The translations under genes and the position numbers were made by a program. A DNA stretch of 64,000 nucleotides from Rosellinia necatrix. Its lineage: Eukaryota; Ascomycota; Sordariomycetes; Xylariales; Xylariaceae. Shown one piece after another: positions 3,883-35,133 of this stretch. A model generated the notes under the pieces. That model worked only from the letters and a program-made list of their open reading frames with translations. It searched no databases and had not been told where the DNA came from. Numbering within the stretch: the first letter of the stretch is position 1; every line of letters begins with the position of its first letter. Where the stretch lies: the NCBI GenBank assembly GCA_021209875.1, contig JAGYVD010000002.1, positions 3,720,001 to 3,784,000 on the forward strand, in the 5' to 3' direction.

Positions 3883-4037
3883 CTGCCCCCCTTCCCCTTC
3901 CCCCCTACCTCTTTTATTAAATAAGCCTAAAAATTAATAATATTAAGCTTTATTTTTATATTTAATGCTTTATTTATTATTTAGACGTTATTTTATAATA
4001 ATTAAACTTTATTTTAAGCATTTTTAATATAATATAG

Positions 4038-4358
4038 TGTTGCAGAGGAACAGATAAATCGTATAGGAACAGTAGAATTAGAGCCGAGCGATTAATACAG
4101 GCAAGTCAATTCAAGCTTATAATAATAATCTATCTAGTTAAATTATATTATATAAAAATAATTAAACTAGCCAGCTTATATATATAGCTTAAAAAAAATT
4201 ATATTTTTTTTGTTTTATAATTAGTCTGTTTAAATAAGTCGGGCTTATATAAGCCCGACTGTTTATTTTAATAGTTATTAATTTAGCTATAAAACTTACC
4301 GCGGTATTTAAGTTATAATTACCAGCTTTTTGCTAAAGCTATTTATTTTATCGTAATA
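4038..4358. repeat. Left LTR of element G
   Basis: This 321-bp repeat starts TGTTGCAGAGG and ends in a RIP-altered form of TCGTGACA (here TCGTAATA). It contains a palindromic GGGCTTATATAAGCCC around a TATA-like core. The first ~70 bp keep some G/C, while the second half is almost fully converted compared with the right LTR, where that part is intact. Confidence 0.8.
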
Positions 4359-4970
4359 TATTTTTTAGATCTAGCTAATTAAAGCTTAATTTATAAAATA
4401 AATTTTAATAATCGCTTTATATAGCTTTATATATAAAAATAAATAATAATTTTATAATTAATTTAAATAATTACTTTTAAAAATTTTATAATTAAAAAGC
4501 TTTTTTTAAATAAAAGTTGCTATTTAAAATAATTAATAATAAAAAAAAATATAGTTATTAAAGCAATTAATTAATAAATAATTTTATAAAAGCAGTATAA
4601 ATATTTTTAAGTAGGTAATAGCTTAGTTTTTTTTTTAATTTTTAAATCGATTAGTTAATTTATATATAATTTTTAAATAGCCGGCATTTTAGCGCGCGTT
4701 AATTTTAAGCTAACAGCTGTTTTTAATAATTTTAAATAATTTTAAAATTATTTTTTATAAATAATTTTTTTATTAAATATATACTGCAGCAGGCAGCTTT
4801 ATATATAATTAGTTGTTTTAACTAGTATAAATAATATTAAAATTTATTATATTTAGTTTTTAAACTGCTGTTTTTTTTTTTTATAAATAATTTTTAAAAT
4901 TGTTTTAATTTTTTATATTATAATTAAAAAACTAATTTTATTTTAAAATAAATATTTTTATATTATTATT

Positions 4971-5173
4971 TAAAAGGTGCACTATAGGGGTGTAAAATAT
5001 ATATTATAAAAAATAAAAATCTAGCAAATCTAGGCTAAGCTAAAGTTTTACTTAAGTATAGGCTAAAGCTTATATATATAAGGCTAGGCTTAATTAAGTT
5101 GTGCTTATAGCTACAGGCTATAGTATTTTAAGCGAAAAGCTTATATAAGCGTTTTTTTTATGCGTGCGTATTA
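4971..5173 (-). repeat. LTR of element A (heavily RIP-mutated copy)
   Basis: Aligns along its length with the near-intact solo LTR at 25557-25759. Differences are almost all C-to-T or G-to-A. Conserved landmarks include AAATCTAGCAAATCTAGGCT and CTTATATAAGCG. Confidence 0.8.
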
Positions 5174-7399
5174 AAAAGCTGTGCTAATTAAAAAGTTCTG
5201 CTAATTTTAGCAGAGTCTGTTATATAATTTATTATAGTTAGCTTTTTTTTTTAACGCTTATTTATATTATAAAATATAAATTATATTAGTTTTAATATTT
5301 TTAATAAGTTTTTGCTATATTAAAGTTGTTTTTCTGTTATTTATTAATTATATTTATAATTTTATTTTTTTATTTAATAAAATAGTTAAAGCTGTTATGT
5401 TTTTAATTAAAATAATACTTAAAAATAAATTTTATTTTATATATATTTTTTCGTTAAAATTTTGTTTAATTTTTATAAGTTTAAGCAGCAGTATTAATTG
5501 CTTAAAAAGTTAAGTTTTTAAAATTACACGTAAATGTTTTATAAAAATTATTAAATAAATATAAAATTATTAAAAAATTTAATTTATAAGCTAGGTTTTT
5601 ATTTATTATTTAACTGTTTAAAGTTTTAATTTTTATTAAAAATATTTTTTAATAGTCGACCAAACAAATAATATTTTTATATAAACGTAAATAAATTTAA
5701 TTTTTTTATTAAATTTTAATAAGCAGTGTTTAACGTTATAAATATGTTTTGCTGCAGCTTAAATAAAATTTATTGCTAAATAGGCGTTTTAATATAAATA
5801 TTTATAAAAAACGTATATTTAAAATTTTTTAATATTATTAAAATTAATTAATATTTTTAATATATTAAACAATTTAAACTTAAATAACTGTTTATAAAAA
5901 TTAAATATATAATATTATTATATGCAGCGTTTAAATTTTATTATAAAAAAATATAATATTTATTTAATCTATTTTTAATTTAATAAATATATAATATTAT
6001 ATTATTATTTTAACTGTTTAATTTTTATGTTTTAACAAGCTGTTTATTTATAAGTAATATATAGCTGTTATTATTAGCTTAATATTAAATAACTTTTATA
6101 TATTTTATTAAAAATTAAATATAAACTTTTAGTTTTTATTAAAAATAATTTTTTTAAAAATGCTTTAGTTGTTTAATAAAAGTTATTTAGTTAAAACAGT
6201 GCTTTATTTTTCTGCTATATATTTTTTATATTTAAAGATTAATAATATATGTTTTAAAGCAGGGCATAAAACTGTTATTATAACGTTATATATATTAAAA
6301 TATAGTTTTTTTTTGTTTAGCTGTTAAAAAGTATTTTTAATTTTAATTTTTAAAAGTGCTAAAATAAAATTTATATTTATAATATATATAAGTAGTAGGT
6401 TTTTAAGTTTAATTAGTTTTAGCTTTTCTACGGATAGCTGTTTATTAGTTTAATTTAAATTATATATGTTATAATATTTAATATAATTTTTATTATTTAT
6501 ATTTTATTAATTATTATAAATAGTTTTAATGTTTATATTATTTATTAAATATTATAGTACTGTTTTTTATTATACGTTTATTTTAAAATTTTTTAATTAT
6601 ACTGATTAAAATATATAAACGTTTTATATTTGCATGCATGTTATATATTAGTTTATTTATAATAATATTAAAAAAATATTTAAGCTTAAAATAAACTGCA
6701 ACGTTTTTATCGCTTTTTTTTTTTTAAAGTATTTTTAAATTTTTAATATTTATATATATTTATAGTTTTTATATATGCTGCTAAAAATTTGTTTTTTAAA
6801 GTTTTATCTATAATTGCTTCTAATATAAACATATAGAACGCGGCTTTTAATTTTTTTTATATTATATTTAGCACAGGTTTATTATTTATTTTTATTAGTT
6901 TTTTATCTGCTTTTTAAACATTTAATATTATTTATAAACAGCTAAAAGCGTTTAATATATAGTTTAGCTTATTTAGTAAATAATATATATATAGTCTGTA
7001 TTATAATAAATTAATAAATAAATTAATTAGTTTATAATTAACGCGTTTAATAGCTGCAGTTTTTAAAGTTGTTTATTTAATAATATTTTTAATAGCTAAA
7101 TAATCTGTTAATATAATTATTAGTTTTTTATTAAATTATATTATTATGCGCAGCTTTTTAGCTATTTAAACTAAGCATGTTATTTTTAGTTTTAAAAGTC
7201 TATAGTTTATTTCTGCGTTAATTAACGATTTATTTAAATATATTATTAATTAAACATTAGTGCTAAAAATCGTTTTTTTTAGTTTTTATATATTTTTTAG
7301 CTTTAAATAAAAAATTATTATTTTAAAACTTTTTTATATTAATCCGTCGATTTATAAAAATAATTTTTTATATAAGTTATAATAAAACAAAGTAGTTTT

Positions 7400-7870
7400 T
7401 TTGCATATAATATTTTATATAGCTTTAAATAAAGCTATTTTTAAAATAGTTAATTTATAATATTTAGTTTTTATATATGTTTTACGCTTACTTAGCTTTT
7501 TTGTTTTAATACGCTTTATTTATTTATTTTTAGCTAATAAAACAGCTTTTTTTTTCTGCAGCGGCTTAATTAGCTTTATATAATATAAAATCAGGCTATA
7601 TAAAAATCTTGTTACGTTTATATATTATTTAAAAGCTTTTAGTTAATTTAAAAAAGCTAGGTTGCGAATTACTGCAACGCGGCTTTTTAATATTGCTATT
7701 TTAAATATATTTATTTTAAATCTAAATAAATTTATTAAAAATAGCTAGTAAAAGATTTTATTAATAATATAATTATATATTTGTTTTAAATAGCTTAAAT
7801 ATAATTTTTAAATATTTTTATACTGTTTAGTAATATTTAAAAATATTATTATATTATTTATAAATGTTTT
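7400..7870 (-). pseudogene. Reverse transcriptase/RNase H relic of element A
   Basis: On the minus strand, codons at 7867-7853 read T-F-I-N-N-I-I-I-F. This matches the FxDD catalytic box of fungal Gypsy reverse transcriptases with both Asp codons changed GAT to AAT. About 60 codons further, around 7690-7530, the reading resembles the conserved thumb/connection block: a run like RNLAF, then YINVTRFL, then a PLQKKKA-like end. At 7437-7418 IALFKAI resembles the start of the RNase H region. Gln/Arg codons appear as TAA or TAG, as RIP produces. Family recognition is from memory of the motif order; no search was run. Confidence 0.7.
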
Positions 7871-10800
7871 ATAATATTTTTAATATATTTTAAAAAATTG
7901 TTTATATAACGTTATATATAAGCTAAAAAATTATAAAATTTTATTACTGCAACGCAGTACTTTTTATTTTTTCGGGCTTATTATTATAAACCGGTTTTTA
8001 AAGTTTAAATATATTAAAAACTAGTAAAAAATATTATTATATTAATAATAGTTATAAAATGCTTTTTTTAAAGATTTAATTATTTCTGTTTATAATAATA
8101 ATAAATAGTTGTTTAATATAGCTATTTTGTTAAAATTTTTAAGTTTATAACTATTTAGTTTTTTATATTATTATATTTAAAAGTTTTATTTTATTTAATA
8201 TTAATCGCTATATTATAAATATAAAATATATAAATAAAGTTAGTTTATTAATTTATTTTATATGTTTTTTTTATAAAAGTTGTTATAAAATTTATTAAAA
8301 AATCTATGTTTTTGTAACTAAGTAAGTATATGCGACTTATAAGCTTAATGCTTTAGTTTTGCTAACTTTTTATTAAAAAGCTTTTAATTATTATTTAATT
8401 AATATATTAACTATTTTTTATTTTGCTAAATATTAAAAACTCCGGTTATTTTTTTAAATTTTTTAGCTAAAAACGTTTTTTAACATATATATATATACTT
8501 ATAGAAGTAATTATTTCTAGCATATTTATAAATTATTTAATTTTTAATATAAATATAATTTTAAAGATTTTAAAACATATTATTTTTAATATTAATATAT
8601 TTTTGTTTTTTATTTAAAAAGTTTATTATGTTTTTATAGCATTTATAAACGGCGTTTTAAAAAAAATATAACTGGGTAAGCTTTTATAAAATCGGCGATT
8701 TTATTTAATATTAGCATATTATATAAAAATATATTGTTTATTACTACCGCTGTAATTATTAAAATTATTTTAAACTATATATTTATATATACTAATATTT
8801 TAACTTAATTAAATATTTATAAAAAGCTTTTTTTTATAAATATAAAAATATTGTTAAAAAATAGCTTTACGTTATTATTTATATTAGCAATTACAGCTGT
8901 AGTAGCAACTGCTAATATACTTAAAGCTTTTTTATAGTTGTAATAAAATAGCTTTAATTTTTATTTTTTATATTATATTTATTTTTACGCTTTTAATAAT
9001 TATAACGCGTTTTTTAAACGTATTAATTATTAATATAACATATAATATTTTTATATTAATAGTTATATTTATAGCTGCCAGAATAATTTCTAACGCAAAA
9101 AAGCTAAAATTACAGTTAATAAATAAAGCTTTATATTTAACAGCTATATAAGCTTTTTTTCTGCTTTAAGGTTTATTTTTTTTATTTGTTATTTTTTTAT
9201 ATATTTATATTTTTAAGCTTAAATATTAAATTTTAATTAAAACTTGTTTAAAGTTAAAAATTAAATTATATTAGTTTTATAGCTTATAATTATTTAATAT
9301 AAAAAAAAAGTTATTTTTAAAAATAGGTTAAGTTTTAATTTTTTATTATTTAGTTTTTTTATAGAATTTTTATTTTATTAGTTTTTTTTATTGTTAGTTT
9401 TTTATAAATAAACAAAAACTTAGCTTATTTTTAAGCTTAATTAGTTTTAATCTAATATTTTAAAAAATCTGCGTTATTTTTTATTATATGTTCTAAAATA
9501 TTTAAAAAGCTTTACTAATATATATTATATTTATGCTTAAATCGGCATATATTTTTATTTTATTGTTTGTTTTAAAGTTTTATGTTTTAAATTATAACTA
9601 AATATAATATATATATTTTTATTTTTTTATATTATATATAAAAGCTTTTTAATACGTTTTATTTTTTAGCATTTTGCGAATAATTAGCGGTTTTTATTTA
9701 TTTAATTGTTTTTACTTAAAGTATGCTGTTATATTTTTATTATATTTTTTTTAGCTTGCTTATAATATTATAAATGTTTAAAAATAAATTATAAAATAAT
9801 ATTAATACAGTGCAATATTTATATATACGTTTTTTTAAATTAAATAAAAACGGTATATTTAACTTTTTAAAACAAATGTTAAATTTATATTTATATAAGT
9901 GCTAAATTTTTTTATTACTAGTAATAAATTTTTTATAATATTAATAACATATTAAGTCTGCTATTAGCTAGTGCGACGTTTTAGATATATTATTTTTTTT
10001 TTAATTTTTAATAAGTAATAGTTTAACTAATTTTTATCGGCTTTTTTAAAAAAATAAACTTAATTGTTTTAATTATTAATATAATTTCTATTATTACGAT
10101 TATTTTTGCTACGTCGATTATTGTTTTTTAACCGTCGATTGTTTTTATTAAAGTTATAATTTCTACGATTTTTACGTTTTTATAAAAAGCTAGATAATTA
10201 GTTGTTTTATCGGTTTTAGTTATATTAATTATTGCGGTTATATTTACTGTTATTATAACGTTGTTAGTTTTTGCTATTATTTTTTTAATATTATTTTTTT
10301 AATCGGTTGCGCAAATAATTTTTTAATTAGTTTTTATAATAGTAATTATTTTTAAAAAAAGACTTAAGTTAATATATGTTTTTTTAAGTATTAAAAATTA
10401 TTAATTATACGGGGTACGTTATATTTTTTGTCTGCCGATTATTTTTTAGCTAAGTTTTATAAATTTTTTTAATTTTTTAATTTTAAGTATATATTTTTTA
10501 TTTATTAATTTTAAAAAATAGTTTTAAAACTGTTTAATTTTTAATTTTATATTATTATAGATTTATGCTATTACTCTGCGCTAGTTGCTATTATTAATAC
10601 TTAAAATACTTATAGCACGTATATATTTTAGTTGTTTTTATATATATTAAAATAAAATATATAAGTTTTAGTATATATTATAAAACGTTAAATAGTTAGT
10701 TTTAAATTTATATATAGTTATATTAACGTTTATTATAAAGCGTTATTATATTATTTTAATTATTTAGCTTATATTTTTATAATATAGTTTTATATATATA

Positions 10801-12147
10801 ATAAAGCTTAGCTTATTATTTTATTATAAAACTGCTGGTTTTATAAAAATGTTTAAAACAAAAATAAAATTTATTATTTTATTTTATATCGTGTTTTTTA
10901 TTTTTAAAAATAAAATAAATAGTTTATAAAAAAATATATATTAATAAAAATAATGTTTTTTTTTTGTTATTATATTAAAATCATCAGGGTTATTATATAA
11001 TAAATTAAATATATTAATTTTTTTTTTTTTAGCTTAATGTTTTTGCTGTAAATGTTTGTAAATTAAATATTTAACAGGTTAGAATTTTTTTGTTTATATT
11101 TTTTTTATTTATTTGCTTTATTTATATTATAATCGGAGTTTAATAAATAGTTAAATAAGTCTAGGTCAGCAGGTGCTCCTGCTTTTATATTTTTTTAAAA
11201 ATTTTTAAAGTTTTTAAGCTACGCAAATAATAAATAGTTTATTAATGCGCTGTTTTATTATGTTTAGCTTGCTGTTTAATTATTTGTTAATATAAGCTTT
11301 TTTTTATATAAGTTATTTTTTTTTTGTTGCGTTTTTTTTTTTTTATAATAAATCACGGCATAGTTTTGCTTTTTTAAGTTTAAGCTTTATTTTATTATTT
11401 TAAATATATTTAATATAATAGCTTGCATTTTTTAAAGCTTTTATTTATTTATTATTTTAAATAAAAAATAAATAATAATATATTAGTTTAGGCCTACTTT
11501 TTAAAAATATTAATATTTTTTTTAAAAAAGCTTTTTTAAGGTTTTTTTTTTAATTTATTGTTTTAAATAATCGCTGTTTTTTAGTTTTAAATTTAACTAA
11601 TAGTTTTATTTTAAGTTTTAAATATTTAACTGTTTTTTTTGTTAACTTATTATTTAGTTATTTTTGCTTTAAAACATTATTCTAAACATATAAATGTTTT
11701 TTTTTTTTATAACTATTAGCAAGCTTAATAAATTAATAAAATAAATTATAGTATAAAAAATAAATAAAATAAATAATTTATATTAAACAGCTAGTTTAAA
11801 TATTTATAACGTTTGTTTTATTATTAATTAAAATATAAAAGTATATATTAAACTTACTGTTTATTTTTACTACGTGTTTATAAAGTTTTTTTAATATTTT
11901 TAATTAACTATGCTATTTAAACAACTTTTTAATTCTTAAAACAGATTATTAATAAAAATAATATTTAGCTTTAATAAATATATTAAATATAAAAAAGCTT
12001 TTGTTTAGCTTGTTTAAACAATATATGCTTTTAACAGCAGGCATACGTTTTATATTTATAAAAACAGTTAGAAATAATTTTGTTTTTAAAAAATAAAATT
12101 TAATAATTTAATTTAATTTTATAAAAAACGTTATAAAAATATTAATT

Positions 12148-12348
12148 TAAAAATATATTATAAAAATATAAAATATATATTATAAAAATAAAAATCTAGC
12201 AAATTTAAGCTAAGCTAAAGTTTTATTTAAATATAGGCTAAAGCTTATATATATAAGGCTAGGCTTAATTAAGTTGTGCCTGTAGCTACGGGCCATAGCA
12301 CCCCAAGCAAGGGGCTTATATAAGCGCTCCCTCTACGCGCACGTATTA
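12148..12348 (-). repeat. LTR of element A (RIP gradient copy)
   Basis: The left ~100 bp are converted to nearly pure A/T. The right ~80 bp (CCTGTAGCTACGGGCCATAG and on to the end) are almost identical to the unmutated solo LTR. The change from mutated to intact occurs within the repeat and continues into the GC-containing GCT-repeat DNA to its right. Confidence 0.75.
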
Positions 12349-12515
12349 TTACTGCTACTGCTGCTATAACTACTGCTGCTGCTGCTAGTGCTACTGCTGC
12401 TCCGCTTTTATATTATTTGTTTGCTTATTTATTTTTTTGCTTGTTTTTTTTTTTGTTTTTATTACTGCTGCAGCTGCTGCTGCTTAAGCCGCCGCTGCTG
12501 TTAAAAAGCTAGGCT
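12349..12515. repeat. Imperfect GCT/CTG trinucleotide repeats
   Basis: Two clusters of GCT-type triplets (about 12349-12410 and 12466-12515) lie just outside element A, in element G internal DNA. They are among the few G/C-containing stretches here. The triplet GCT lacks CpA on either strand except as CAG/CTG, so partial resistance to mutation is plausible but unproven. Confidence 0.6.
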
Positions 12516-13253: not shown

Positions 13254-13490
13254 AGTTACGGATAACTGGTTGGCCAATCGGGCATGTGGCACGGACCAGT
13301 ATCTGTACACCTGTTGCCAACTAGTGCGCACAGCGCACAGACTAGACCTACCCTACACATTTGCATTTAGCCAGAATTCTAGTAGGCTAATTTTTCCTAC
13401 TTACTTTTTTTTTTTTTTATCTGTAGATTTTTTATATAATATATTATTTATTGCTAAAGCTTTAACTTTTTATTTATAACTAATATAATA
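13254..13490 (+). repeat. 5' LTR of element B
   Basis: 237 bp. The first ~140 bp keep G/C (for example GGCCAATCGGGCATGTGGC). The last ~80 bp are converted, ending CTAATATAATA where the 3' LTR reads CTGGTGCAACA. Confidence 0.88.
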
Positions 13491-16400
13491 ATCTATAAAT
13501 TATTTTATTTTAAAACATTAAAACTGTTTTTTTAAATATTTTTTATATAAAAACAATATTAACGATATAACATTAATTTTTTTTGTAAGCAGTGCTTATA
13601 AACGTGCTAAAAATTTAACATGTTAAAACGTTACTCTATTATATAAAGTTTTTAAGTTATTAGCATATTTTATTAAAAAAACTTTTAATAATATATTTAA
13701 AACTAAATATATTTAAATTATTTTAAAAAACTTAGTATAATATATTTAATTATTAAAGTTAATATTAAAACTAAAGCTATATAAAACTTACTGTTTAACT
13801 TTATTTAAAAATTTTATTTATAAGTTAAAACTTTAGACTTTTAAACTGTTTTATATAATAAAACTTATAAATTTTTTATAAAGCAGTTAATATTTTAATA
13901 TAAAATTTTGCTATAATTATTATAAAAAGCAATTAATAGGTTTTTTTAAAACTTATTATAAAAAAAATAATCTTGCTTAATTTAACTTTAATAAACTTAT
14001 TAATATAAAATTATTTATAAATTTTATATAAACTTTTTATTTTTATTATTTTTTTAATAAAATAAAAATTAAAATATATATATTAATAGCTTTTTAATAA
14101 ACAGCGACTAATTACTACTTTATCGCATGTTATACCGCCAGACAAATAAAAACCGCTATAAAATAAGCTATAAAATTTAACGCTTATATTATAAAGTATA
14201 AAAAAACGCTTAATAAAAAGCAAAAATCACTTAAAAATATTAAAGCAGAGCTAATAATAGCTTAAAAATAATTGTTTAATGTTTAAAAAAGCTTTATTAA
14301 AATATAATAAAAATTAAATAAATTACGCGGATAAAACAAAAAATATAAACTTTTTATATTTAAACTATTTAAAAGCTAAAATAATAACGTAGCTATAAAT
14401 TATATTATAGCTAAACTAAAAATTATAACAGCTAATCGCGATTATATTTAAAACTTATTAAATAAATTTAATTAATAAATAGTTAATTTATTAAATTATA
14501 TAAAAAAACATTTATTTTAAAATTTTAAAAGAAAAATATAAAAATCGATTAAAATATTTATAAATAAGTTTTATAATAACGTTTTAAAAATAAAATAAAA
14601 TTTAAAATATAATATTAAAATATAATTAACTATTTTAAAATAAATATAAACTAGTTTGCTAATAATAATATAAAAATAAGCAATATTAAGTTTTATTTTG
14701 CTAAAAAACATTTAAAAACTTAGTTTTATATTTATTTAATAAATATTTTAATATAATTATAATTTTAAAAACTTAATATAATATTTATATAATATTTATA
14801 AAAATATAAACGTTTTAAAAAAATAAAAGCCGATTATAAAGCTTTAAATTTTAATAAATATATGCTTGCTAAATTTATATAATTTAAAACAAATTTTATA
14901 TATTTTATTAAAAAACACGCTTTAATAAAACTAAATAAAAAAAAATTTAAAAACAAGTTGTTATTTTATATAGCTATAAAATTATTTTTAAATATTTAAA
15001 AATATTATAAATTTTAACGCTTATATAAAATATTATATTTAAATAGCTTATTATCTGTTTATAAATAATTAAAAAAAGCAAAGCTTATAAAACAAAAATA
15101 ATATATAAAATATAATATATATTTATTATATTAAACTTTTTTAGCTATAATAATTTAATTAATTTTATTAGTAAATATATTTATAAAAAACAAAACGCCG
15201 ACTTATAACTAAAGAAATAAAATAGTTAATTATTAAAAATAAATGCTTTTAATATAAACAGAAAAATATATTATTAAAAACTGTTTTATAAAAGCTATAG
15301 ATCAGGTTTAACGCGATGCCCGCGTAAATATAATTATAAAAAGTTTAAACCAGCAACTTTTAAAATTAAAAAAGTACGGCAGAAAAACAAAAAAATAACT
15401 TTAAAAAATAAACTTTTTTAAAAATAATATTATTATATAAAAATAAAAAAACTTAATAAATAATTATTTAAATAAAAACTTTTATTATATATTTATATTT
15501 TATATAATAATAAATTATTATTTATTATTTTTAATATATTTAATAATATAAAAGCTGATATATATATAAATATAAATATATTTTTACTAAAAAATTATAA
15601 AGCTATTAAACCTACTTATTAAAAAAAGTTTAAACTTAAACTAATAATTAAATATAATAGAAAATTAGATTAAAAATTAATCGTGCTTTATATTTAATTT
15701 TAAAAATATATAAAAAATATTTAAAATATACTACTGTTAATATTTTAAATATAAAATAAAAAGTAGTATTAAAAAAAAAATAGTTTAAACAGTATAATAT
15801 ATTATTTAATATTAAATAATATATATTAATTTTATTTTATTTATTAAAAATTATAAATATTATTATATATTAGCTATAAATAAAGCTAAAACATAGTTAT
15901 AATATTTAAAATATTAAACAAATATTAAACAAAAAATAAAAATATTAACTTTAAAAATGCTTGTTAAAAACTAAAAAAAAGCTAAAAAGCTTTTGCAAAA
16001 AATACTAGTAGTAAAAATAAAATTATAAAAGATCTGATTTTACGTTAAAAATATAAAAATAAACTAAAACTTAAAAACGTATTTTTGCTTAATAAATTTT
16101 AAAGCTTTAAACTAAAAAAAGTTATATTAAATAAAAAACAATTTATATTTTTAAATTAAAAATTAGATGTTTTAGACTTTATTATATAAAAAAAAAAAAA
16201 GCTAATATAAAAAAAACTAAACATTTAAATTACTATTTTTAATATTATTGCTTTTAAAACGTTAATATATAAAAATAAAACTAATAACTAAATATAAATT
16301 ATTAATATTTATTAAATTAATAAGTTAATTAACTAAAAAAACAAAAAAACTAAAAAATAAAAACGCAGAAAAAAATATTAAAACTTATATTTTTAAATAT

Positions 16401-16653
16401 TATAACTTATTAAACGTGTTTAATAAAAAAATTTAAATAAATTATTTTTCTACCGACTTTAAATAAACTATAAAATAAATTTTATAAACAGCAAGTTTTA
16501 AAAACTTAAAATATAATTTTTATATAAAATATTACTTGACAAGCTGCACGCTGTACAAGAATATTTAATTAATAATTTATAAAAAAATTTATTAAATTAA
16601 ACGATATATTATACGCTTTTTTAATATTATTTATTAAAACAGCTAGCAAAAAA

Positions 16654-16980
16654 CTCTGTTTTTATATAAACTATTAAAAACTTAATAAAATTATAAAAAA
16701 AAACTAGTACTTATTGCTTTTTATTAAAAAAACTTTGTTTTATATTTTAATATTAAAATTTTATAAAATTAATATATAATAAACATTTTATTATATTAAA
16801 ATATATTAAAAAATAAAAACTTTATTATATTTTATATTAAATATAAAGCTTATTGTTATAAAGTTTTTTATTTAATTTAATAAATAGATTTTCTATGTTT
16901 TAAAAATATATTAATAATATATTGTTTAATTTTTAAATAACTTTTATAGCGCATATATAAACAACGTTTTTATTTATTTT
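16654..16980 (+). pseudogene. Reverse transcriptase relic of element B
   Basis: From 16654 the frame reads L-C-F-Y-I-N-Y-stop-K-L-N-K-I-I-K-K-N-stop-Y. This is the Gypsy block F-x-V-D-Y-R-x-L-N-x-x-T-x-K-N-R-Y with Asp to Asn and Arg codons to TAA/TAG. About 50 codons on comes a block like TFRTRYGAYKYKVLPFGL, read here as IIFYIKYKAYCYKVFYLI. Exactly 100 codons from the start and still in frame, 16951-16980 reads A-Y-I-N-N-V-F-I-Y-F, the AYxDDxLIYS catalytic box with both Asp codons changed GAC to AAC. Order, spacing and frame all agree with a Ty3/Gypsy polymerase. Confidence 0.85.
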
Positions 16981-19709: not shown

Positions 19710-19946
19710 AGTTACAAATAACTAGTTAGCTAATCAAGCATATAGCACAGACTAATATCTATACACTTGTTGCCAACTAATGCGTACAGCGTATAGACTG
19801 GACCCACTTCACACACCTGCACTTAGCCAGAATTCTAGTAGGCTAATTCCTCCTACTTACTCTTTCTTTTTTTCATCTGTAGATTTTTCATACAATACAT
19901 CACTTATTGCTAAAGCCTTAACTTCTTATTTATAACTGGTGCAACA
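19710..19946 (+). repeat. 3' LTR of element B
   Basis: 237 bp, preceded by a polypurine tract. The pattern is the reverse of the 5' copy: its first part is moderately RIP-mutated and its last part nearly intact. The two LTRs are thus mutated in different places. Confidence 0.88.
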
Positions 19947-20708: not shown

Positions 20709-20913
20709 TAAGAAGATTAGTATAAGGGTAAAAAGAAAAAAATGCTTTTATTAATTCCTCTGCTAGGTGGAAAATTCTAGTAAGTCTAGAATTAACCCCT
20801 GCAGGGGTGGCCGTAGGCCACCTGTTGCCAGCCGTAGCCTGTGCAACCTATCTAATCTAATAATACACGAGCTGTTGGCTTGATTAATATAAGCTTTTTT
20901 AGAAACTTTATTA
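20709..20913 (-). repeat. Left LTR of element C
   Basis: 205 bp. The core is well preserved, including the stem-loop GGTGGCCGTAGGCCACC and the box ACCTATCTAATCT at about 20846-20858. Its right end is converted (CTTTATTA against CTCTATCA in the other copy). Confidence 0.82.
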
Positions 20914-23089
20914 AAATACCGGCGGACAGAAAAACAGCTATTGTTTTTAATAATACGTTAGGTTGTTTTATAAAGCTATTTTTTACGCTTAATCTTTTTT
21001 TTTATTTTAAAATAAAAGCCGTTTTTTTTTTAATAGTTGTTTATTATTTTTTTTAAATAATATAGTTAGTTTTTAATATATTATTTGTTATGTTTATATT
21101 TCTAGCTTTATTATTTAATTAAATAATTAAATTTTTTTTTTTTTAACGTAATATTTAAAATTTATTTAATTTTATATATTTTTTATTATTGCTATTTAAA
21201 TATTTATATTAGTTAGCTTTTACTAGCTTAAACGCTAGTTTAGTTTGTTTAAAAAATTATTTTAGCTATATATACGTTTTAAATAAGCTATTAATATTAT
21301 TAAATAAATTTTATAATGTTTTAAAAATTTAATTTATAAGCTAAATTTTTAATTTTTTTTTATTGTTTAAAGTTTTACGCGTTATTATAAATATTTTTTA
21401 AAAGCTTATTTAATAAATAATATTTATTATATAAACGTAATAATATTTTTATTAAAAATAAATTATAATATATAATATTTACTATTATAATATTTTTTAG
21501 TTTATGCTGCAGCAAAATTTATTGCTAGCTTAATGTTTTATTTAAAATAATTTTTAAAGTTTTTATTTATTTTATATTTAGTTAATTAAATTAATTAATA
21601 ATAAAGTTTAAAAGTTCTAGTAATTTAAATCTAAATAGCTGTTTATATAAAATAAACTATATTGTTTATAATTATATAATATTAAAGTTTTATTATAATA
21701 TTAAACATAAATTAACTTAGTTAAACTTAAAATTTTTAAAGTTATAATAACATATTATTAATTTAAATATTTAGTTTTTTTTAATAATTTATTATTTTAA
21801 AAATAATATGTTATAGTTATTAATAATTTTATGCTTAAAAGTTTTATATTTTTTTTAAAAGTTAAATATAAACTTTTAGTTTTAATTAAAAATAATACTT
21901 TTAAACTTTTTTAATTATTTATTAGCAATTATTTTATAAATATATTAGCTTAGTTTTTAATTATATATTTTTATTTTTAAAATAAACAAGCTTTGCTTAA
22001 ATATATAATATAATATAATTATTATATAATTATATATATTATACTATTTTTGCCTGCTAATTATTATAAAATACTTTTAATATTTATTAAAGGTAGTTTT
22101 AATATAAAATTAATTATTATTATTTATATAAACAATATATTTTTAAATATATTAATTTAAAGCTTTTATTAGTTTAAATTAGTTTATATAATTAAAATTA
22201 TAACTTAAACAGTATTTAATATATTTTTAATTAACTAAGATTTATAATAAATAAAAACTTTTAAAATTTTTATTATTTTTTTAAACCGGCATAATATTTA
22301 TTATTATATACAGCTTTAAACATTTATTTAATTATATTATATAAAACATATAATCGTTTTATTTTTTAATATTAATTATAAATTAAACTATTTATAATAA
22401 AAAAAAAATGCTTAAGTTTAAAAAATATTATAACGTTTTTATTGTCCTGGCAAAATTCTAAAATATTTAGCTTGTTTATTATTTTATTATATTATATATT
22501 AGTTTAATAATTTTTTTAAATTTTGTTTTTATTTATTATTTATTACTGCTTTTATTATATATTTTATTATATTTTATATTAAGTTTAATATTACTAGTTC
22601 TTTTAATTTTTAGAACTTGCCTGTTTTATTTATAGCGTTTTATATTAATTTAAATCTGCTTAATATATTTAATATATAGTTTAATTTTTTAATAAATAAT
22701 ATATTTAAAATCTATATTAAAAAAATATATTAAAAATTAACTAATTAAATGTTTATATAATTTATAGCAGCTATATTTAATAATATTTAATTAATTATAG
22801 TTTTAATTATTAAATAATTTATAAATATAATTATATTGTTTTTATTAAATTAAACTATTATTTATAGTTTTTAGCAGCTTAAATAAAACAAGCTATTTTT
22901 AATTTAAATAATTTATATTTAGTTTTAGCTTATAATAAACTATAATTTAAATATATAATTAATTCTATTTATATTAATAAAATTAAGTTTTTAAGCTTTT
23001 AGTTATATTTTTGCTTATATAAAATAATATAACTTTAAAACTACGTTTTTAGCTTTATTTATTTATAAAAAACAGTTTTTAAATCGTAA

Positions 23090-23555
23090 TATTATAAAAT
23101 TATTTTATAGCAGATAATATTTTAAATAGCTTTAAATAAAGCTATTTCTGTTTTTATTAATTTATAATATATATTATAAATATAATAAATACGGTTTTTT
23201 ATTTAAAATTTTTTTTTTATATTTTTTATTAAAAGTTAATTTTTTAATTTTATAATAGTTCTACTAACTAAACATAATATAAAATTAAATTATAAAAAAT
23301 CTGCTTGTTTTAAAATATTTTTTAAAAGCTTGTAATGTTTTTAAAAACTAATTATTAAAATATTTATATTTGTTTAGCAATAGTTAATAATTTTAAAACG
23401 TTTATACAGCATTTAAAAATTTTATAAATAAATAGCTAATAAAGATTTTATAAAAATATTACAATATTTTTTATAAAATAATATAAAAATTATTTTAAAA
23501 TGTTTAAAATAATTTTATAACTATTAAAATATATAATAATATTATTAATAAAATA
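23090..23555 (-). pseudogene. Reverse transcriptase/RNase H relic of element C
   Basis: On the minus strand, 23555-23541 reads Y-F-I-N-N, the FxDD catalytic box with both Asp codons changed to AAT. Further along, around 23150, the minus strand reads I-A-L-F-K-A-I, the same start of the RNase H region as in element A, at nearly the same spacing (about 131 versus 139 codons). Stops and at least one indel break the frame between them. The shared motifs suggest A and C are related Gypsy families. Confidence 0.6.
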
Positions 23556-25556
23556 TTAATAATAATATATATATTTATACAGCAGTTAATTTATATATTT
23601 TTATATATATATTAAAAATTATTATATTTTATTAATGCTATGTTAAGTCGTTTTAAGCTGTAAAAACTAATTATTATAAATATATTTTTAAATTTAAAAT
23701 ATATTAAAAATTAATAAAAAATCCTGTTGCGTTAATAATTATAATATATTTTTTATTTAACAAGCTTTTAATTATTTTATTTTATAAAAATAATAAATAA
23801 CTGTTTAAAACTATTATTTTATTAAATTATTAAAATTAACTACTACTTAGCTTTTATTAACTCTATATATTTTTATTATATAATAAAAATAAAATAAGCA
23901 AAAATATTAATTTATTTATTTATTATAATCAACTTATTTTATATAGCTTATTATAAATATTATTTAATACTTTTATATTTTATTTATTAAAAAATACTGT
24001 TTTAAATTTAATTTAGTTTTTGCTAGTTATTAATAAAAATATTTTAAATTGTTTTTTATAAAATGTTTATTTTTTGCGATTTATTTAAATATTATAAAAT
24101 ATAACTATTTTAATAAATTAAAAAGCTTTAAACGTTTTTTAGCGTATATATAAACATTTTTTTTAATAATAGTTTTAAAAAAGTCGCCTGGTTTTTTAAT
24201 ATTTAAAAAAAAATACGTATTTTTAACTTTAAGTTTATTTTCTAGTGTTAAAAAGTTTAGCTTAAAGTTTTTTAAAGCTTTTAAGTTAATTATTATATTA
24301 AATATAGCGTTTATAAAAAAAATACTTTCTGTTAACACGTTTAAACGTGCTATTTTATATTTAATATTTTTTATATAATATTAAACGTATTAATTATTTA
24401 TATATTTATTATAAAAATTATTATAAAGTTTAATATATAATTTATTTTATTTAAATATATAACTGTTTTTATATTTAATACTATATTAATTATTACTGCA
24501 GTTAATAAAAATTTAAATTAAATTTTGCATTAATTATAATAGTTATATTTATTAAAAATTATTTATTAGTTTTAGTTAAAACTATTTTTATTAATAATAA
24601 AACAATAGCTATAACTATAAAAGTTATTATCGGCGATTTTTAAAAGCTTATATATATTTTATTATTTTTATTTTTTAAATTTAACTTAGTTTAATATTTT
24701 TATAAATTTTAATAGTTTTTATTAAAATATTTATTATTAGTACTATTTTAAAAGTTTTAATATTAATTATATTATATATATTATTTTTATATATAGCTAT
24801 AAAATAAAAGCTTTTATTATTTAATAAAAGTTTATATTTTATTATAAAATAAGCTTTTTTTATTTTATAGTTTTATGTTTTTTAACTAATAATTTTTATA
24901 TATATTTGCAACTATAAATAAATATATTAAATAAAATTATAAATTTATTTATTTTTCAGCTTAATAAATAAATATTTCTAATTTATAATTAATTATAACT
25001 TTATATAAATATAAAAGTTATTATTAAATAATATTTTAGTTTTAAATAATTTTTATTACTTATTTTTTTTTATATATTTAAATATTTTAAGTTTTTTAAT
25101 TTTATTTACTTCTTTAATATAAAAATAAACTTAGCTTTTTTTAAATTTAATTAATTTATTTTTAAAATAATAAACTTAACTTAATTAAAAACAGTTTTAT
25201 ATATTAAAATATTTAAAAAGATTTGCTAATAATAGTTTTTTAGTATTTAAATCAACGCAAATTTATTAGTTTTATTTAACTAAAAATAACTTAATATTAA
25301 TCCGTAAATATATATAACTTAATTAAAAAGCTTTACTATATTTGTTGTTAATATTTAATGTTTTAATTATAAAAATCTTGCGGTTAAAAATATTATTAGC
25401 TGCTTTATATATTATATTAAAGCATGTTTTTAACGTGTTATAATTTGCTTTTTTTTTTTGTTTAATAGTTTTATTTTTAGCTTTAGTGTAATTTTATAAA
25501 TGTTTAAAAAGTTAGTTATATAAAAATAGTTTTTAAAAATAATACTTATAAATATA

Positions 25557-25759
25557 TGAGAGGTGCACCATGGGGGTGTAAAGTGTGTATTATAAAAGAT
25601 GAAGATCTAGCAAATCTAGGCTAAGCTAAAGTTTTACCTAGGTGTGGGCTAGGGCCCACATACATGGGGCTAGGCCCAATTAGGTTGTGCCTGTGGCCAC
25701 GGGCCACAGCACCCCAAGCGAGGGGCTTATGTAAGCGCTCCCTCTACGCGCGCGTATCA
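25557..25759 (-). mobile_element. Solo LTR of family A nested in element C, unmutated
   Basis: 203 bp, starting TGAGAGGTGCACC and ending GCGCGCGTATCA, flanked by a 5-bp duplication ATATA (25552-25556 and 25760-25764). It is the least mutated copy of this LTR and serves as the reference for reading RIP changes in the copies at 4971 and 12148. It stands out as a GC-normal block in fully AT-rich DNA. Confidence 0.88.
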
Positions 25760-28374
25760 ATATATTTTTTACGTATAATTAAAAAAAATGTTATAATTTT
25801 TTTAATTTAATATAAAATTATATTTTTTATATATAATTTTAAAATAATTTTAATTTATAAATTTAATAGTATTAATAACCAATAAAAGCTAAATTTAATA
25901 TTAAATAAAAAAAGCGCGTTTTTGTTGTTATTTTGTTTAGTTTTTGTTTATTTATACTATTATTTATAAAATATATATAAAATAAACACTAGTTATTTTT
26001 TTTTTAATTTTAATTATAGTTTTTACGATTTAAATATTTATAATTTTAACTTTAATTATAATTATAGTTATATTTTTAGTCACGCTTCCGATTATAATTT
26101 TTTAGTTTTTAATTGTTTTTTTTGGTTTTTTAATAATTATCGCGGTTTTAATTCTAACGCTTGCAGCTTTTTTTGCAGCTGCTACTTTAGTTGTTGCAAC
26201 TTTTGCTCTAGCTTTAATATTATTTATAACTACGTTTGCAGCTATTTCAGCTTTAATTTTTAAAATATTTGTTGTTTAATCGACGTTTTTTTTAATTAGG
26301 TTAACAATTATAGCTTTTTTAGCAAGTTGTTTTAACAGCTAATATTAAGTTTATTAATATTGTTTTTAATTTAATATTTAAATATATTTTTTAGTTTTAT
26401 GTTTTAACCTGTGTTAACTGTTTTTTATTTTATATATATAATTAGCTAAAGTTTTTTTAATTTAAAAATTAAATATAATTTAAAATTACGTTTTTTATTA
26501 GTTATAAATATTTTTATAATTTTATGCCAGTTTTTATTGCTTTTTTGCAGCGTTTTTATAGCTTTAACGTATTATATTTAACGTTAAATAAACTAAAAAA
26601 ATATTTTTTAATTTTCTGCGATATTTTTTAAAATAAATTTTTTTTTATAAACTTTTAAAACGTTTTACCGGCTTGCGTTTTAAATCTTTTTTATAGTTTT
26701 TTAAACAATATATTTAGTTCTGCTTTTTTTTATATATATTAGTTGCTTATATAAACTTTGCTGTTTTATTATAGTAAAGCTAATCTAACTAATAAATAAT
26801 TAAACAGATTAATTATTTATTAAACGTTTAAAGCTTAAATATTTTTGTTTTTTAGTAATAATTTAATATAATTAATAAAAAATAAACGTTTATATAAATT
26901 ATGTTTTTTTTGTTAGTTATATATTTTTATTGTTAGGGTTTTTTTATTTTAAGTTAAAAATACTAATATTATTTTGTTTAATTTTATATATGTTTTTTTT
27001 TGTTTTAGCTGCTATATTTAATATAAACTATTTTTATCGGTTTAATGCAGCATAACTATATTTATTATTATTAGAACTATTTAAACTAAAAAAATTAAAT
27101 AAATTGTTATTACTACAGTTTTACTGTAATAATAGTTATTACTTCTGTTTTTATTATTATAACATTTATAAAAATTATTTTAATATTTAATAAAAAGTTT
27201 TAAGTTATTATTTTTTTAAAAAGTTTTTATTTAATAAAACATATAAAAAAATATAATAATTATAATATTTAATTTATTTAAAACATTTATAGTTATATTT
27301 TATATGCTGGTTATTTAAACATTAGTTAATATAACAGCTTTATTTTTGTTTTATTAGCAGGTTTTGTTTTAAATAACTAATTTACCGCTTTATTAGCTTT
27401 AATATTATTTCTAGTCAGCTGCAGTTCTAAGTTCTGCATTATTAAAAATTTAATATTAATGTTTTTAAAAGTTTAAAAACTTTTAAACCTGCTTAATTAA
27501 TTTTAAAACTAAGTTAAAAAATACTTTTATAATTTTTACGTTTTTATATAAAACATTAATTAAAACGTTAGCTTATTTTTAATATTTTAAAAAATAATCA
27601 ACAGTGTTTTAATCTAGGCTAAATTATTTTAGCAGCAGCATATTTTTAAATAAAAATTATACTAATTTAAAATATTTTACTAAAAAATTTTTAAAGTTGC
27701 TTATATTTAAGCTTAATATATATAATAAAATATAATAACATAATATTATTACAAGCTTAAAAAAATTAAACGTATTATTAAAAAAATGTTTAAATATATA
27801 TATAATATGTTTAAATAGTTTTTGCGTGCAAATATTATCGGCTGTTACTTTTAGTTTATTAACTTATAATTTAAAAATTATAAAAGTAAAACAAAATAAA
27901 CTGCGCGCATAAAAAAATAAAATAATAAAACTACTTTTTAAAAAATTCCAGCTTTTAACTATAATATATATACTTATAATTGTTTAATAAACATATTTAC
28001 TAGCGTTTTTTTAATAATAAATAAAAATAAATAATTTGCTACGTTTATAAATCTAAATATATCTTAGTTATTAAACACGTTTAAATATATAATTTTAATA
28101 ATAATAACTTTTAAAATATAAAAATAAACTACTAAACACTTTTTAACAACTGCTTACTTATAAGCTTTAGCAAAGTATATAATTTATACAAAAAAAAATA
28201 GTTGCTAAAATAACGTTCCGTTTATATTAATTATTTAATTATAGCCAGATTAAAACGCGCGCGCTTAAATCTTTAGCTACAAACAAAATCTTTCGACCTT
28301 AAAAAATCTAAAAAATAATATTAGTTTAGTTTAGTTTAATAACAAAATCTATCGGTTGCATAAATGCACTATTT

Positions 28375-28579
28375 TAAAAAAATTAATATAAAAATAAAAA
28401 ATAAAAAATGCTTCTATTAATTCCTCTGCTAAATAAAAAATTCTAATAAGTCTAGAATTAACCCCTGCAGAAGTGGCCGTAGGCCACCTGTTGCCAGCCG
28501 TAGCCTATGCAACCTATCTAATCTAATAATACACAAGCCGTTAGCTCGATTAATATGGGCCCCTTCAGGGACTCTATCA
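28375..28579 (-). repeat. Right LTR of element C
   Basis: 205 bp, same order of landmarks as the left copy. The left end is converted to A-runs (TAAAAAAATTAA against TAAGAAGATTAG) and the right end is intact (GGGCCCCTTCAGGGACTC). Confidence 0.82.
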
Positions 28580-29751: not shown

Positions 29752-29934
29752 TAGTAAAGTTTACTAGGGGTAGTGTGGTTAAGTCTCTAAAAGTGTGATG
29801 TAGAATTCAAGAAGGAAGGGCTTCTGGTCCCGCAGGGACCAGAAGCCTTAGGCTAGTACCTTATCTAATCTACACAATCCTTATCTAGCTAGCTTCGCTA
29901 GCTAGATAAGGAGCCCCCCTTCCTGACTGTGTCA
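29752..29934. mobile_element. Short element D (copy 1), hairpin-rich, nested in G
   Basis: 183 bp flanked by a perfect 5-bp duplication AAACT (29747-29751 and 29935-29939). Ends are TAGTAAAG...GACTGTGTCA. It contains two strong inverted repeats: CTTCTGGTCCC with its complement, and CCTTATCTAGCTAGC facing GCTAGCTAGATAAGG across a 3-base loop. It has not been hit by RIP. A solo LTR is likely from the 5-bp duplication and CA end; a foldback element is an alternative. Confidence 0.75.
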
Positions 29935-31197
29935 AAACTAAAGTATTTTTAAATTAAAATATGCTGCTAAAGCTATTATAAGTTTAAAAGTTTTTATAGC
30001 AAGTGTTGTTATATAAGTTATTTATAGCATATTTTTTAGCTAAAAATTATTTTATATTATAATATGCAATTTATATTGCTTAACGTATTTTTTTTTATTA
30101 AACTTATATTAAAATATTTATTTAAGCAGTAGCAGAAATCTTAGGACTTTGTTTAGTTTTACTATTTTAATTAAATTTTTTTAAGCGATTTTATTTTTAT
30201 ATAAGCATTAATATAAAACTGTTAGCTTATTAAATAATTTTAAAGATTTTTTTAGCTTTTTAGTAGCGGTTTTAGCAGATTGTTTATATATACACGCTTT
30301 TTTAGCTTAATATTTATTTTTTTTGTTTTATTTTAGTTTATTACAGCTGTAAATACTGCGTATAATATTTTATGTTTTTTAATTTTTTTATAAAGTATTT
30401 GTTTTTAATTAAATAAATAAGTTTTTATAAAGTTAAATTAATTTTAATTATTTAGAACTTTGATAATATTATTTAAATAAATTATTATAATAAATATAAA
30501 TATATTATTAATTTTTTAATATTAAGTTAAAATTTTTAGCTTTTAATTTTTAGTTTAAATAAAAGCCGCTAGAAATACTTTATGTATATATATACGTTTT
30601 ATTAGTTTATTTAATTAATTAGTTAATTAATAAGCTGTTTATGTTTTAGCGATTAGTATTTTAAAGCTATTTTATAATGTTTAATTATTTTAGTTTTAAA
30701 AAGCGACTTTTTAAGCTTTTTTTTAAAGCTGATTAGTTTTACGTTAAATAAAAAGCTTTATTTTATTTTATATAATCGTTTTATTTTTTATATTTAAGCT
30801 TAAAAGCTTTTTCTAGCTTATAGTTTATTTTTTTATTTTTAATTTTTAGTTGTTTTTTAGTTTAAAAATGTTTTAAAAAATTATAAGTTTATACAGCTAA
30901 ATATTATAAGCGCTGTTTTTAGCAGTATATTTTTTAGCTGTTTTTATTTTTAATTTTTGCTCTGTTAGTTAGTTTTTTTCAAGTTTATTAATTAAATTAA
31001 AAATACTTTTATAAAAAACAGAAGTAATAAAAATATTTTTAAGCTTATATACAGCTATAAGTTTAATATTTTATATATTTAATATAATAAAAAATTTAAA
31101 AGTTTAAATTTAATTTTAATAATTTATTTAATAAAAGGTTTATTTATTTTAATCGTTAGTTTTTTCTGCATTTTTTAATAAAAGATTTTTTTGTTAA

Positions 31198-31446
31198 TGT
31201 TAGAGTAGGCAAGGGGTGCCAGGCTTGGCACCACCAGTTGCCCCACTGTAAGATTAGATAAGGTGGCCCAGGCCACCTGGGCTAGCCCACTTGGGCTAGG
31301 CCCACCCACCTACTGTAGGTGGAATTCTAGGACTGCACCTAGAATTCCACCATCTTGATCACCAACACACATACAACACCACAAACTAGACCAGCATACT
31401 GCAAATACAGCTATTTACAGCTTCATACCCCTGACCAGATTTATCA
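31198..31446. mobile_element. Solo LTR E nested in G
   Basis: 249 bp with TGTTAGAG...ATTTATCA ends and a perfect 5-bp duplication GTTAA (31193-31197 and 31447-31451). Composition is normal, so RIP did not act on it. It carries stem-loops (GGTGCCAGGCTTGGCACC; GTGGAATTCTAGG facing CCTAGAATTCCAC) and the box AGATTAGATAAGGT at 31251-31264 shared with families C and D. No second copy is in the window. Confidence 0.8.
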
Positions 31447-33717: not shown

Positions 33718-34158
33718 TGATACGCGCCGACAGGGGAGTCGCTTATATAAGCGCTGTAGCCCCACCTGTAGCGTGGCAAAGCCACGCACCCCACCACTTG
33801 GGACTAGCCCTAATAAGTGGGCCCTGGCCGACGCACCTAGCTAGATCCACAAGTTAGATCAGAATAGTTGTTGCACCAGTCACAAATAAGAAGTCAAGGC
33901 TCCAGCAATAAGTGATGTATTGTACGAAAAATCTACAGATGAAAAAGGAAAGAGTAAGTGGGAGGAATTAGCCCACTAGAATTCTGGCTAAGTGCAGGTG
34001 TGTGGGGTGGGTCTGGTCTGTGCGCACCAGTTGGCAACAGGTGTACGGATGTCCCGCGCGTGCCACGCACGCCGCGGGAAGGACCAGTCATCCGTAACTA
34101 TAGTTAGATCTTCATCTTCTACAATACACTTTTCACCCCCCCCATGGTGCACCTCTCA
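33718..34158 (+). mobile_element. Solo LTR of family A, split by a nested LTR
   Basis: Starts TGATACGCGCC and ends GCACCTCTCA, opposite in orientation to the copy at 25557. Perfect 5-bp duplication TTAAG (33713-33717 and 34159-34163). After removing the nested family-B LTR and its duplication, 205 bp remain, matching the usual family-A LTR length. It is largely unmutated. Confidence 0.88.
33869..34099 (-). mobile_element. Solo LTR of family B nested in a solo LTR of family A
   Basis: 231 bp, inverted relative to the LTRs of element B: TGTTGCACCAG...CCGTAACT. Target duplication ATAGT at 33864-33868 and 34100-34104. This is a three-level nest (B in A in G). It is near-intact and includes a stretch (CCGCGCGTGCCACGCACG) lost in the mutated full-length copy. 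Confidence 0.88.
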
Positions 34159-34776
34159 TTAAGCTTATAAAGCTAAAAAAGCTAATTAATTATAAAAAGC
34201 AATAATAATTGCTTAAATTGTTTATTTTCTATTTTTATTTATTATAACTGCAACTTTTATATATTTAATTTTAATAATTTTTTTATTTATTTATATAATA
34301 TTAAATATTTAATAAACTTAGTTAAACTTATATTATATAGCATTATAACTTTTTATAATTTTTAAAATATTTAAAATTAATTTATTAAGTCGTAAACTTA
34401 AAATTTTTATTTTTATATATTTTTTAAATTTAATAATAATCTGATTTTTATTAAAAATATTAGTTTAATATTAAAAAATAAATTGTTTTTGCTACGTTTA
34501 AATTTATAATATTTTAAAAATTTTTATTTTTAATATAAATTTTAAACTTTTAAATTAATAAAACTAATCTGCTAAACTATTTAAAATAACAAACTTAATA
34601 TAATTAATTGCTATAATAAAAATAAATTATTAAATTTTAATAATTAAATTAAATAATTGTTTTAAATATAAAATAAATAAAAATAAAAAATAAAACTTTT
34701 AAATTAATAAGCTTTAAAATAAAAATCGCTTTTATAACAAAAAACACCGGCTTAATTAATAAACCAGGCTTATAAC

Positions 34777-35097
34777 TATCACAAAAAAACAAATAAATTA
34801 TATAAAAACAATAAAATTAAAGCTAAGCGATTAATACAAGCAAATTAATTTAAGCTTATAATAATAATCTATTTAGTTAAATTATATTATATAAAAATAA
34901 TCAGACTAACCAGCTTATATATACAGCCTAAAAAAGATTATATCTTTTTTGCCCTGTGATTAGTCCGTTTAAATAGGTTAGGCTTATACAAGCCCGACTG
35001 CTTACCCCAACAGCCACTAACTTAGCCACAGGGCTTACCGCGGCACTTGGGCTGCGATCACCAGCCTTCTGCCAAGGCTATCCACTTCATCGTGACA
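34777..35097. repeat. Right LTR of element G
   Basis: Same length (321 bp) as the left LTR. The left half is RIP-converted (starts TATCACAAAA where the other copy has TGTTGCAGAGG). The right half, from about 34930, is nearly unmutated and ends ATCGTGACA. TATAG follows, matching the base pairs left of 4038. The RIP edge therefore lies inside this LTR. Confidence 0.85.
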
Positions 35098-35133
35098 TAT
35101 AGGTATTAAAAAAAATTTATAGTTATATATTTA

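What the first reader, a model, noticed from the sequence alone, without database searches (positions are those of the whole stretch)
4033..35102. A 31-kb AT island resolves into one retrotransposon with three-level nested insertions
Direct reading: LTR pairs with equal lengths (G 321/321, B 237/237, C 205/205, A about 203/201) and target duplications (G TATAG, B TCTTT, solo A ATATA and TTAAG, solo B ATAGT, D AAACT, E GTTAA; A and C with one RIP-type mismatch each) define at least eight separate insertions. Subtracting them leaves about 8.2 kb for host element G. The order follows: G first, then A, B, C, D, E and solo A into G; solo A into C; solo B into a solo A. Such a fully readable insertion history is uncommon in RIP-decayed DNA, where boundaries are normally lost.
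Basis: partly seen in the sequence, partly recalled or inferred. Interest (0 to 1): 0.75.

Follow-up and report, generated by a model that had tools for sequence, protein, structure and literature searches.

The report
Nested retrotransposons in mutated fungal DNA
A 31-kb AT-rich block in a fungal chromosome is one old jumping gene that other jumping genes landed in, some inside each other; the layering is real and readable, but this kind of structure is already known.

Summary
Host element G (LTRs 4038-4358 and 34777-35097, TSD TATAG) carries A, B, C, D, E and an A-type solo LTR; a solo A lies inside C and a solo B inside the A-type solo. The seven host pieces sum to 8,215 bp. In 20 other G copies chosen from the same genome, 107 of 120 site-by-copy tests read across the predicted empty sites (base level).

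Why is it readable? In 19 of 19 G elements with both LTRs in hand, RIP-type mutation falls off toward the outer end of each LTR. Short units of 183-257 bp are hardly mutated: 60 of 60 fetched A, B, D and E copies have GC 0.45-0.54 and 54 of 60 have perfect 5-bp TSDs. They were taken from the top hits to clean queries, so clean copies are over-sampled.

Nested clusters in a RIP fungus (PMC4522978) and clean solo LTRs beside RIPed full copies (PMC10787394) are published, so this is a well-resolved member of a known kind. The edge gradient within natural LTR pairs is the freshest part; three narrow searches showed no report of it.

The parts
4033..35102 (+). Host LTR retrotransposon G with 5-bp TSDs TATAG at 4033-4037 and 35098-35102; strand shown is that of the LTRs as aligned, coding strand unknown
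   Evidence: other G copies
4038..4358 (+). G left LTR, 321 bp
   Evidence: genome copies
34777..35097 (+). G right LTR, 321 bp
4971..12348 (-). Element A, LTRs 4971-5173 and 12148-12348, TSD TTATT/TTACT; weak RNase H trace on the minus strand (Ty3/gypsy type), RIPed
   Evidence: 40 internal hits scored, window included
13254..19946 (+). Element B, LTRs 13254-13490 and 19710-19946, TSD TCTTT; pol similarity on the plus strand (Ty3/gypsy type), RIPed; LTR ends AG..CA
20709..28579 (-). Element C, LTRs 20709-20913 and 28375-28579, TSD AAATA/AAATG; about 4.5 kb 67% alike to A internal; strand inferred from A
   Evidence: no Pfam hit
25557..25759 (+). Solo A LTR (203 bp, GC 0.53) inside C, TSD ATATA
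29752..29934 (+). Short unit D (183 bp, GC 0.45) in G, TSD AAACT; class not proven
31198..31446 (+). Short unit E (249 bp, GC 0.51) in G, TG..CA ends, TSD GTTAA; probably a solo LTR
33718..34158 (-). A-type solo LTR (variant) in G, TSD TTAAG, split by a solo B
33869..34099 (-). Solo B LTR (231 bp, GC 0.51) inside the A-type solo LTR, TSD ATAGT

Best explanation
The island is a nested stack of LTR retrotransposons in a fungus with RIP-type mutation. Shown: G is the host; A, B and C (full length) and the short units D, E and an A-type solo LTR inserted into G; a solo A LTR lies in C and a solo B LTR in the A-type solo; G, A, B and C carry dense C-to-T type mutation while the short units do not; mutation in LTRs declines toward the outer end of each element. 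Inferred: repeat-induced point mutation recognises long homology, acts weakly on the outer 100-150 bp of a repeat and hardly at all on units under about 260 bp. Element ends therefore stay legible, and solo LTRs formed by LTR-LTR deletion before RIP stay clean. Insertion into such islands may be favoured by chromodomain integrases: one H-family element with open frames, a relative of the LTRs that flank this island, has a chromodomain.
For: Boundaries and TSDs. Empty sites in other G copies: 107 of 120 tests; 101 gap-free of 118 aligned of 120. CpA observed/expected 0.56 and GC 0.155 in the island against 0.98-1.03 and 0.47-0.50 outside. Edge gradient: 19 of 19 G elements; in the left LTR half C/G is kept at 410 sites in the 5' LTR against 66 in the 3' LTR, in the right half 38 against 661; A, B and C in the window go the same way. 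Short units: 60 of 60 fetched have GC 0.45-0.54, 54 of 60 a perfect TSD. Chromodomain in the H element. Three loci with DNA-methylase domains.
Against: No Pfam domain was found in the three of seven G pieces scanned, six frames, stops as X, so the superfamily of G is unknown. C has no Pfam hit in the frames scanned, minus strand only. D and E have no shown full-length partner, so 'solo LTR' is an inference there. Fetched short units were the top hits to clean queries, so mutated copies are under-sampled. Of the DNA-methylase loci, the C11 one has stops in its match (introns or damage) and orthology to RID or DIM-2 was not tested. RIP itself was not tested by a cross. 13 of 120 junction tests were shifted or missing.
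Confidence: 0.95

Rival explanations
1. The island is not one nested host element but a patchwork of unrelated fragments brought together by recombination, the G LTRs being two independent solo LTRs.
For: AT-rich DNA gives many spurious similarities at about 61-73%.
Against: The host pieces abut in the same order in other genomic G copies, 107 of 120 tests (base level); the two G LTRs share one TSD.
Confidence: 0.02
2. Clean solo LTRs arise after RIP: crossing-over joins the spared left edge of a 5' LTR to the spared right edge of a 3' LTR, giving a nearly unmutated solo LTR.
For: Edges are spared in full elements, so such a product would look clean.
Against: The 21 solo A units compared (top hits) show no excess of CpA-type variable columns in the middle (quarters 5, 3, 3, 2) and average 98.1% pairwise identity. 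Small numbers; the sample favours clean copies.
Confidence: 0.1
3. The short units are not solo LTRs but short elements moved as such by proteins of other elements, kept short because RIP ignores short repeats.
For: Among 5 lists of 40 hits, same-strand pairs within 15 kb number one each for H, A, E and B and none for D; only the H pair is shown to bound an element. D lacks TG..CA ends and has internal palindromes. No full-length D or E was shown.
Against: A and B units match the LTRs of full-length elements A and B in the window; H units match the LTRs of an element with open frames. A solo LTR has no known way to move on its own (general knowledge).
Confidence: 0.12

Closest known systems
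Nested TE clusters of Mycosphaerella graminicola (Zymoseptoria tritici, synonym recalled; PMC4522978, passages seen)
   Same: LTR base element with primary and nested insertions, 5-bp TSD, CpA-biased RIP; one cluster is 47 kb
   Different: Here the empty sites are checked in 20 sister copies, and mutation is resolved along the LTRs
crapaud and grenouille LTR elements of Podospora (PMC10787394, passages and section 11 read)
   Same: LTRs of full copies are RIPed, solo or fragment LTRs mostly are not
   Different: There GC distributions were used; here individual TSD-bounded units under 260 bp and the positional gradient within LTR pairs
AT-rich elements of Aspergillus flavus (PMC9910759, passages seen)
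   Same: AT-rich islands holding mutated Gypsy elements and solo LTRs
   Different: The word 'nested' has 0 occurrences in its main text

Membership tests
LTR retrotransposon (G, A, B, C) | Paired direct LTRs flanked by a short TSD | tested here: met
   A and C with one transition in the TSD
LTR retrotransposon (G) | Dispersed copies with different target sites | tested here: met
   differing flanks printed
LTR retrotransposon (A, B, C) | Dispersed full-length copies with different target sites | tested here: inconclusive
Ty3/gypsy (B) | Gypsy-type RT-RNase H in the internal region | tested here: met
   RT_RNaseH_2 E 3.1e-7, above its cut-off; tblastn E 8e-33 with the H-family pol
Ty3/gypsy (A) | Gypsy-type RT-RNase H in the internal region | tested here: inconclusive
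   RT_RNaseH E 4.3e-4, 20.8 bits against a cut-off of 24.8
Ty3/gypsy (G, C) | Gypsy-type RT-RNase H in the internal region | tested here: inconclusive
   No Pfam hit; C is alike to A over about 4.5 kb of DNA
Chromovirus (H family, L089) | Integrase followed by a chromodomain | tested here: met
   Integrase_H2C2 E 7.7e-15, Chromo E 6.8e-8; rve 21.4 bits, below its cut-off of 32.6
RIP-mutated sequence | C-to-T type transitions with CpA depletion and AT enrichment of repeats | tested here: met
   (1175 transitions against 34 transversions between G LTRs)
RIP-mutated sequence | Occurs in the sexual cycle and needs RID or DIM-2 | not testable with these tools
   DNA-methylase domains at C4, C11 and C3; orthology not tested
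Solo LTR (units A, B) | Same ends as LTRs of a full element, single copy with its own TSD | tested here: met
   genome copies with perfect TSD 17 of 20 (A) and 8 of 10 (B)
Solo LTR (units D, E) | A full-length element with the same LTRs | not tested
   only pairs among the 40 listed hits were looked for; one E pair 2.2 kb apart was not examined

The most novel reading that the evidence does not exclude
RIP intensity falls off over the outer 100-150 bp of natural repeats, so every LTR pair records which way is out, and LTR-LTR deletion happens before RIP often enough that new insertions end either as mutated full copies or as clean solo LTRs. This would answer, for this genome, the question left open in the Podospora paper of why clean solo LTRs outnumber mutated ones.
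Probability: 0.35. Interest if true: 0.5.

Novelty: new member of a known kind. Interest (0 to 1): 0.32.

Why it matters
It shows that insertion history in RIP-decayed islands can be read and verified base by base, and why: element ends and short units are spared. The opposite gradients in the two LTRs of one element give a built-in control for how RIP senses the end of homology, and the edge effect could help annotation tools find element boundaries in AT-rich isochores.

Tried and rejected
Inverted repeat flanking the island (arms 3648-3712 and 35321-35385), considered as a larger host element: rejected, because these are two separate H-family LTRs with their own TSDs CTGCC and AGGGG.

tRNA-targeted insertion: ARAGORN, run with its bacterial setting, found no tRNA in the window; this setting may miss fungal tRNAs with introns.

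Mid-LTR residual mutation as a sign of post-RIP crossing-over in the solo A units: not seen in 21 units.

Protein domains in G: none in the three largest host pieces, both strands. The H-family pol used as a query hit only B in the window; in the 20 G-copy loci it gave one hit, L017:9681-9986, E 4e-10, beyond the span expected for G there.

I saw passages of PMC10787394, PMC9910759, PMC4522978, PMC4858203 and PMC12543289, and section 11 of PMC10787394; other papers only as listings. That an edge gradient in natural LTR pairs is not in print rests alone and is weak.
Full report
What was checked. The window lies at G000:C2:3720001-3784000 of a 49.1-Mb assembly in 12 contigs. Between about 4.0 and 35.1 kb GC drops to 0.10-0.23 per kb, with CpA observed/expected 0.56 and TpG 0.59, against 0.98-1.03 outside. 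This is the signature of repeat-induced point mutation (RIP). No call names the organism. That it is an ascomycete is my inference from the RIP pattern and from recalled likeness of the neighbouring open frames (no family search made).

Anatomy. LTR alignments and boundary words give: G LTRs 4038-4358 and 34777-35097 (TSD TATAG); A 4971-12348 (TTATT/TTACT); B 13254-19946 (TCTTT); C 20709-28579 (AAATA/AAATG); a solo A LTR 25557-25759 inside C (ATATA); D 29752-29934 (AAACT); E 31198-31446 (GTTAA); an A-type solo LTR 33718-34158 (TTAAG) split by a solo B LTR 33869-34099 (ATAGT). LTR lengths are 321/321 (G), 203/201 (A), 237/237 (B) and 205/205 (C). The A-type unit matches the A LTR at 47 of 53 and 91 of 118 aligned bases in its two parts. 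Nesting is three levels deep in two places. The seven host pieces sum to 8,215 bp.

Test of the empty sites. G has many copies; each search scored only its best 40 candidates (LTR; 5' internal piece; piece between C and D). I fetched 20 copies, chosen for an LTR hit and a nearby hit of the C-D piece, which favours copies without large insertions between these. For six insertion sites the end of the left piece and the start of the right piece were placed in each copy, extrapolating by up to 60 bp. The distance was within 3 bp in 107 of 120 tests (A 17, B 16, C 17, D 19, E 20, A-type solo 18, each of 20); of the other 13, eight were missing and five shifted by 4-42 bp. Joined 150-bp flanks aligned without a gap within 10 bp of the join in 20 of 20 (A), 10 of 20 (B, where the site lies among runs of T), 15 of 20 (C), 20 of 20 (D), 18 of 20 (E) and 18 of 18 aligned of 20 (A-type solo) copies.

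Target sites and order. At the A site the other copies have G or A at the third base (10 each) and C or T at the fourth (14 and 6). Both TSD copies in the window have A at the third base and differ at the fourth. The simplest reading is that G was already partly mutated when A inserted and was mutated again later; this rests on one site and is weak.

Edge gradient. In 19 G elements with both LTRs in hand (the window plus 18 of the 20 fetched; L011 and L017 gave no second LTR in the stretch) I compared the two LTRs of each element directly. In the left half of the LTR the 5' copy keeps C or G at 410 differing sites and the 3' copy at 66; in the right half the numbers are 38 and 661. All 19 elements agree in both halves (sign test 3.8e-6 each), with 34 transversions in all. 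Over 40-bp bins of 117 transition columns the unmutated share runs from 0.76 to 0.22 along the 5' LTR and from 0.20 to 0.89 along the 3' LTR. The same sequence is thus spared or mutated according to its distance from the outer end of the element. A, B and C in the window go the same way (5'-kept to 3'-kept, left and right half: 13:0 and 2:19; 20:6 and 0:17; 14:1 and 3:12). This explains why the boundaries stayed legible. In Neurospora, RIP keeps largely to the extent of shared homology, and one test construct showed few mutations in its first 130 bp or so (PMC4858203, passages seen).

Short units. Each list of 40 hits includes the window copy: A at 96-100% identity, D 91-100%, E 93-100%, B 85-100%, some partial. 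I fetched 20, 20, 10 and 10 of these, from the top of each list, so clean copies are over-represented. All 60 have GC 0.45-0.54. In 56 of 60 both flanks (300-400 bp) have GC of 0.32 or less; the exceptions are L039, L059, L062 and L084. A perfect 5-bp TSD is present in 54 of 60 (A 17 of 20, D 19 of 20, E 10 of 10, B 8 of 10). That they are solo rests on these TSDs; only the A units were also searched for internal sequence, with weak AT-rich matches of 61-75% in three loci (L035, L039, L042) and no clear one. Among 5 lists of 40, same-strand pairs within 15 kb number one for H, A, E and B each and none for D. The H pair bounds an element; in the A pair one member has its own perfect TSD and the other none (L042, L034); in the B pair one member has its own TSD (L085) and the other was not fetched; the E pair was not examined.

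Full-length copies. The 40 scored hits for an internal stretch of A, window included, are 86-100% identical to the mutated window sequence, so mutated A copies are common; a clean A copy would score poorly in that search and is not excluded by it. A six-frame search for RVT_1 gave 17 matches, 5 without stops, on C10 (two), C7, C8 and C12; for RVT_2 none of 16 matches was stop-free. I examined only one of these places.

A relative with open frames. That place, L089 (C10:606000-615900), holds an H-family element with 271-bp LTRs that are 100% identical, stop-free stretches of 599 and 1463 codons and GC 0.46-0.56, in an AT-rich island. The longer frame carries RT, RNase H, an integrase zinc-binding domain, a sub-threshold integrase core and a chromodomain. 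H LTRs are listed 40 times at 86-100%, and more distant H-family LTRs flank the window's island on both sides. I note this as an observation only.

Residual variation. Among 21 solo A units, 13 of 17 transition columns are in CpA context against a background of 26%, so some RIP-type change does occur, without concentration in the middle (quarters 5, 3, 3, 2). The shares for D, E and B are 4 of 10, 6 of 10 and 8 of 18, against backgrounds of 19%, 34% and 34%. For A this speaks against solo LTRs being stitched from the spared edges of mutated elements, and for formation before RIP or escape by size; numbers are small.

Classification. B is Ty3/gypsy-like; A has a weak trace below the curated cut-off; C is alike to A in DNA. 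G stays unclassified.

Known or new. Nested LTR clusters in a RIP fungus, including a 47-kb one, were published for Mycosphaerella graminicola (PMC4522978). Clean solo LTRs beside RIPed full copies were published for Podospora, with the cause left open between early LTR recombination and gene conversion (PMC10787394). The finding is therefore a very well resolved member of a known kind. The positional gradient in natural LTR pairs is the part I did not find in print, which is a narrow search.

Noticed in passing
window 3612-3882 (-) and 35232-35419 (+): Two H-family LTRs flank the island in opposite orientation, with separate TSDs CTGCC and AGGGG; the right one is shorter (188 bp) and by direct reading sits inside a D-family unit that begins near 35134.
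   Followed up: partly
L089:1278-8224: A chromodomain LTR element of the H family with identical LTRs and long open frames, unmutated, inside an AT island.
   Followed up: partly
L009-L028 and window G LTRs: Opposite mutation gradients in the two LTRs of each G element, 19 of 19 with both LTRs in hand.
   Followed up: yes
window 29752-29934: Unit D has internal palindromes, does not end in TG..CA, and has many copies of 183-186 bp; its class is open.
   Followed up: partly
window 13254-19946 and L079-L088: B LTRs begin AG and end CA in the window and in the 10 fetched copies, a non-canonical LTR terminus.
   Followed up: no
L011:7396-9989: Two E-like units in the same orientation 2.4 kb apart, perhaps a short full-length E element; the second is cut by the end of the stretch.
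   Followed up: no
window 12349-12500: A CTG-rich stretch of G next to the A insertion is less AT-rich than its surroundings.
   Followed up: no
G000:C12: Four reverse transcriptase matches, three of them interrupted only by TGA, suggest that contig 12 is mitochondrial DNA with intron-encoded enzymes.
   Followed up: no
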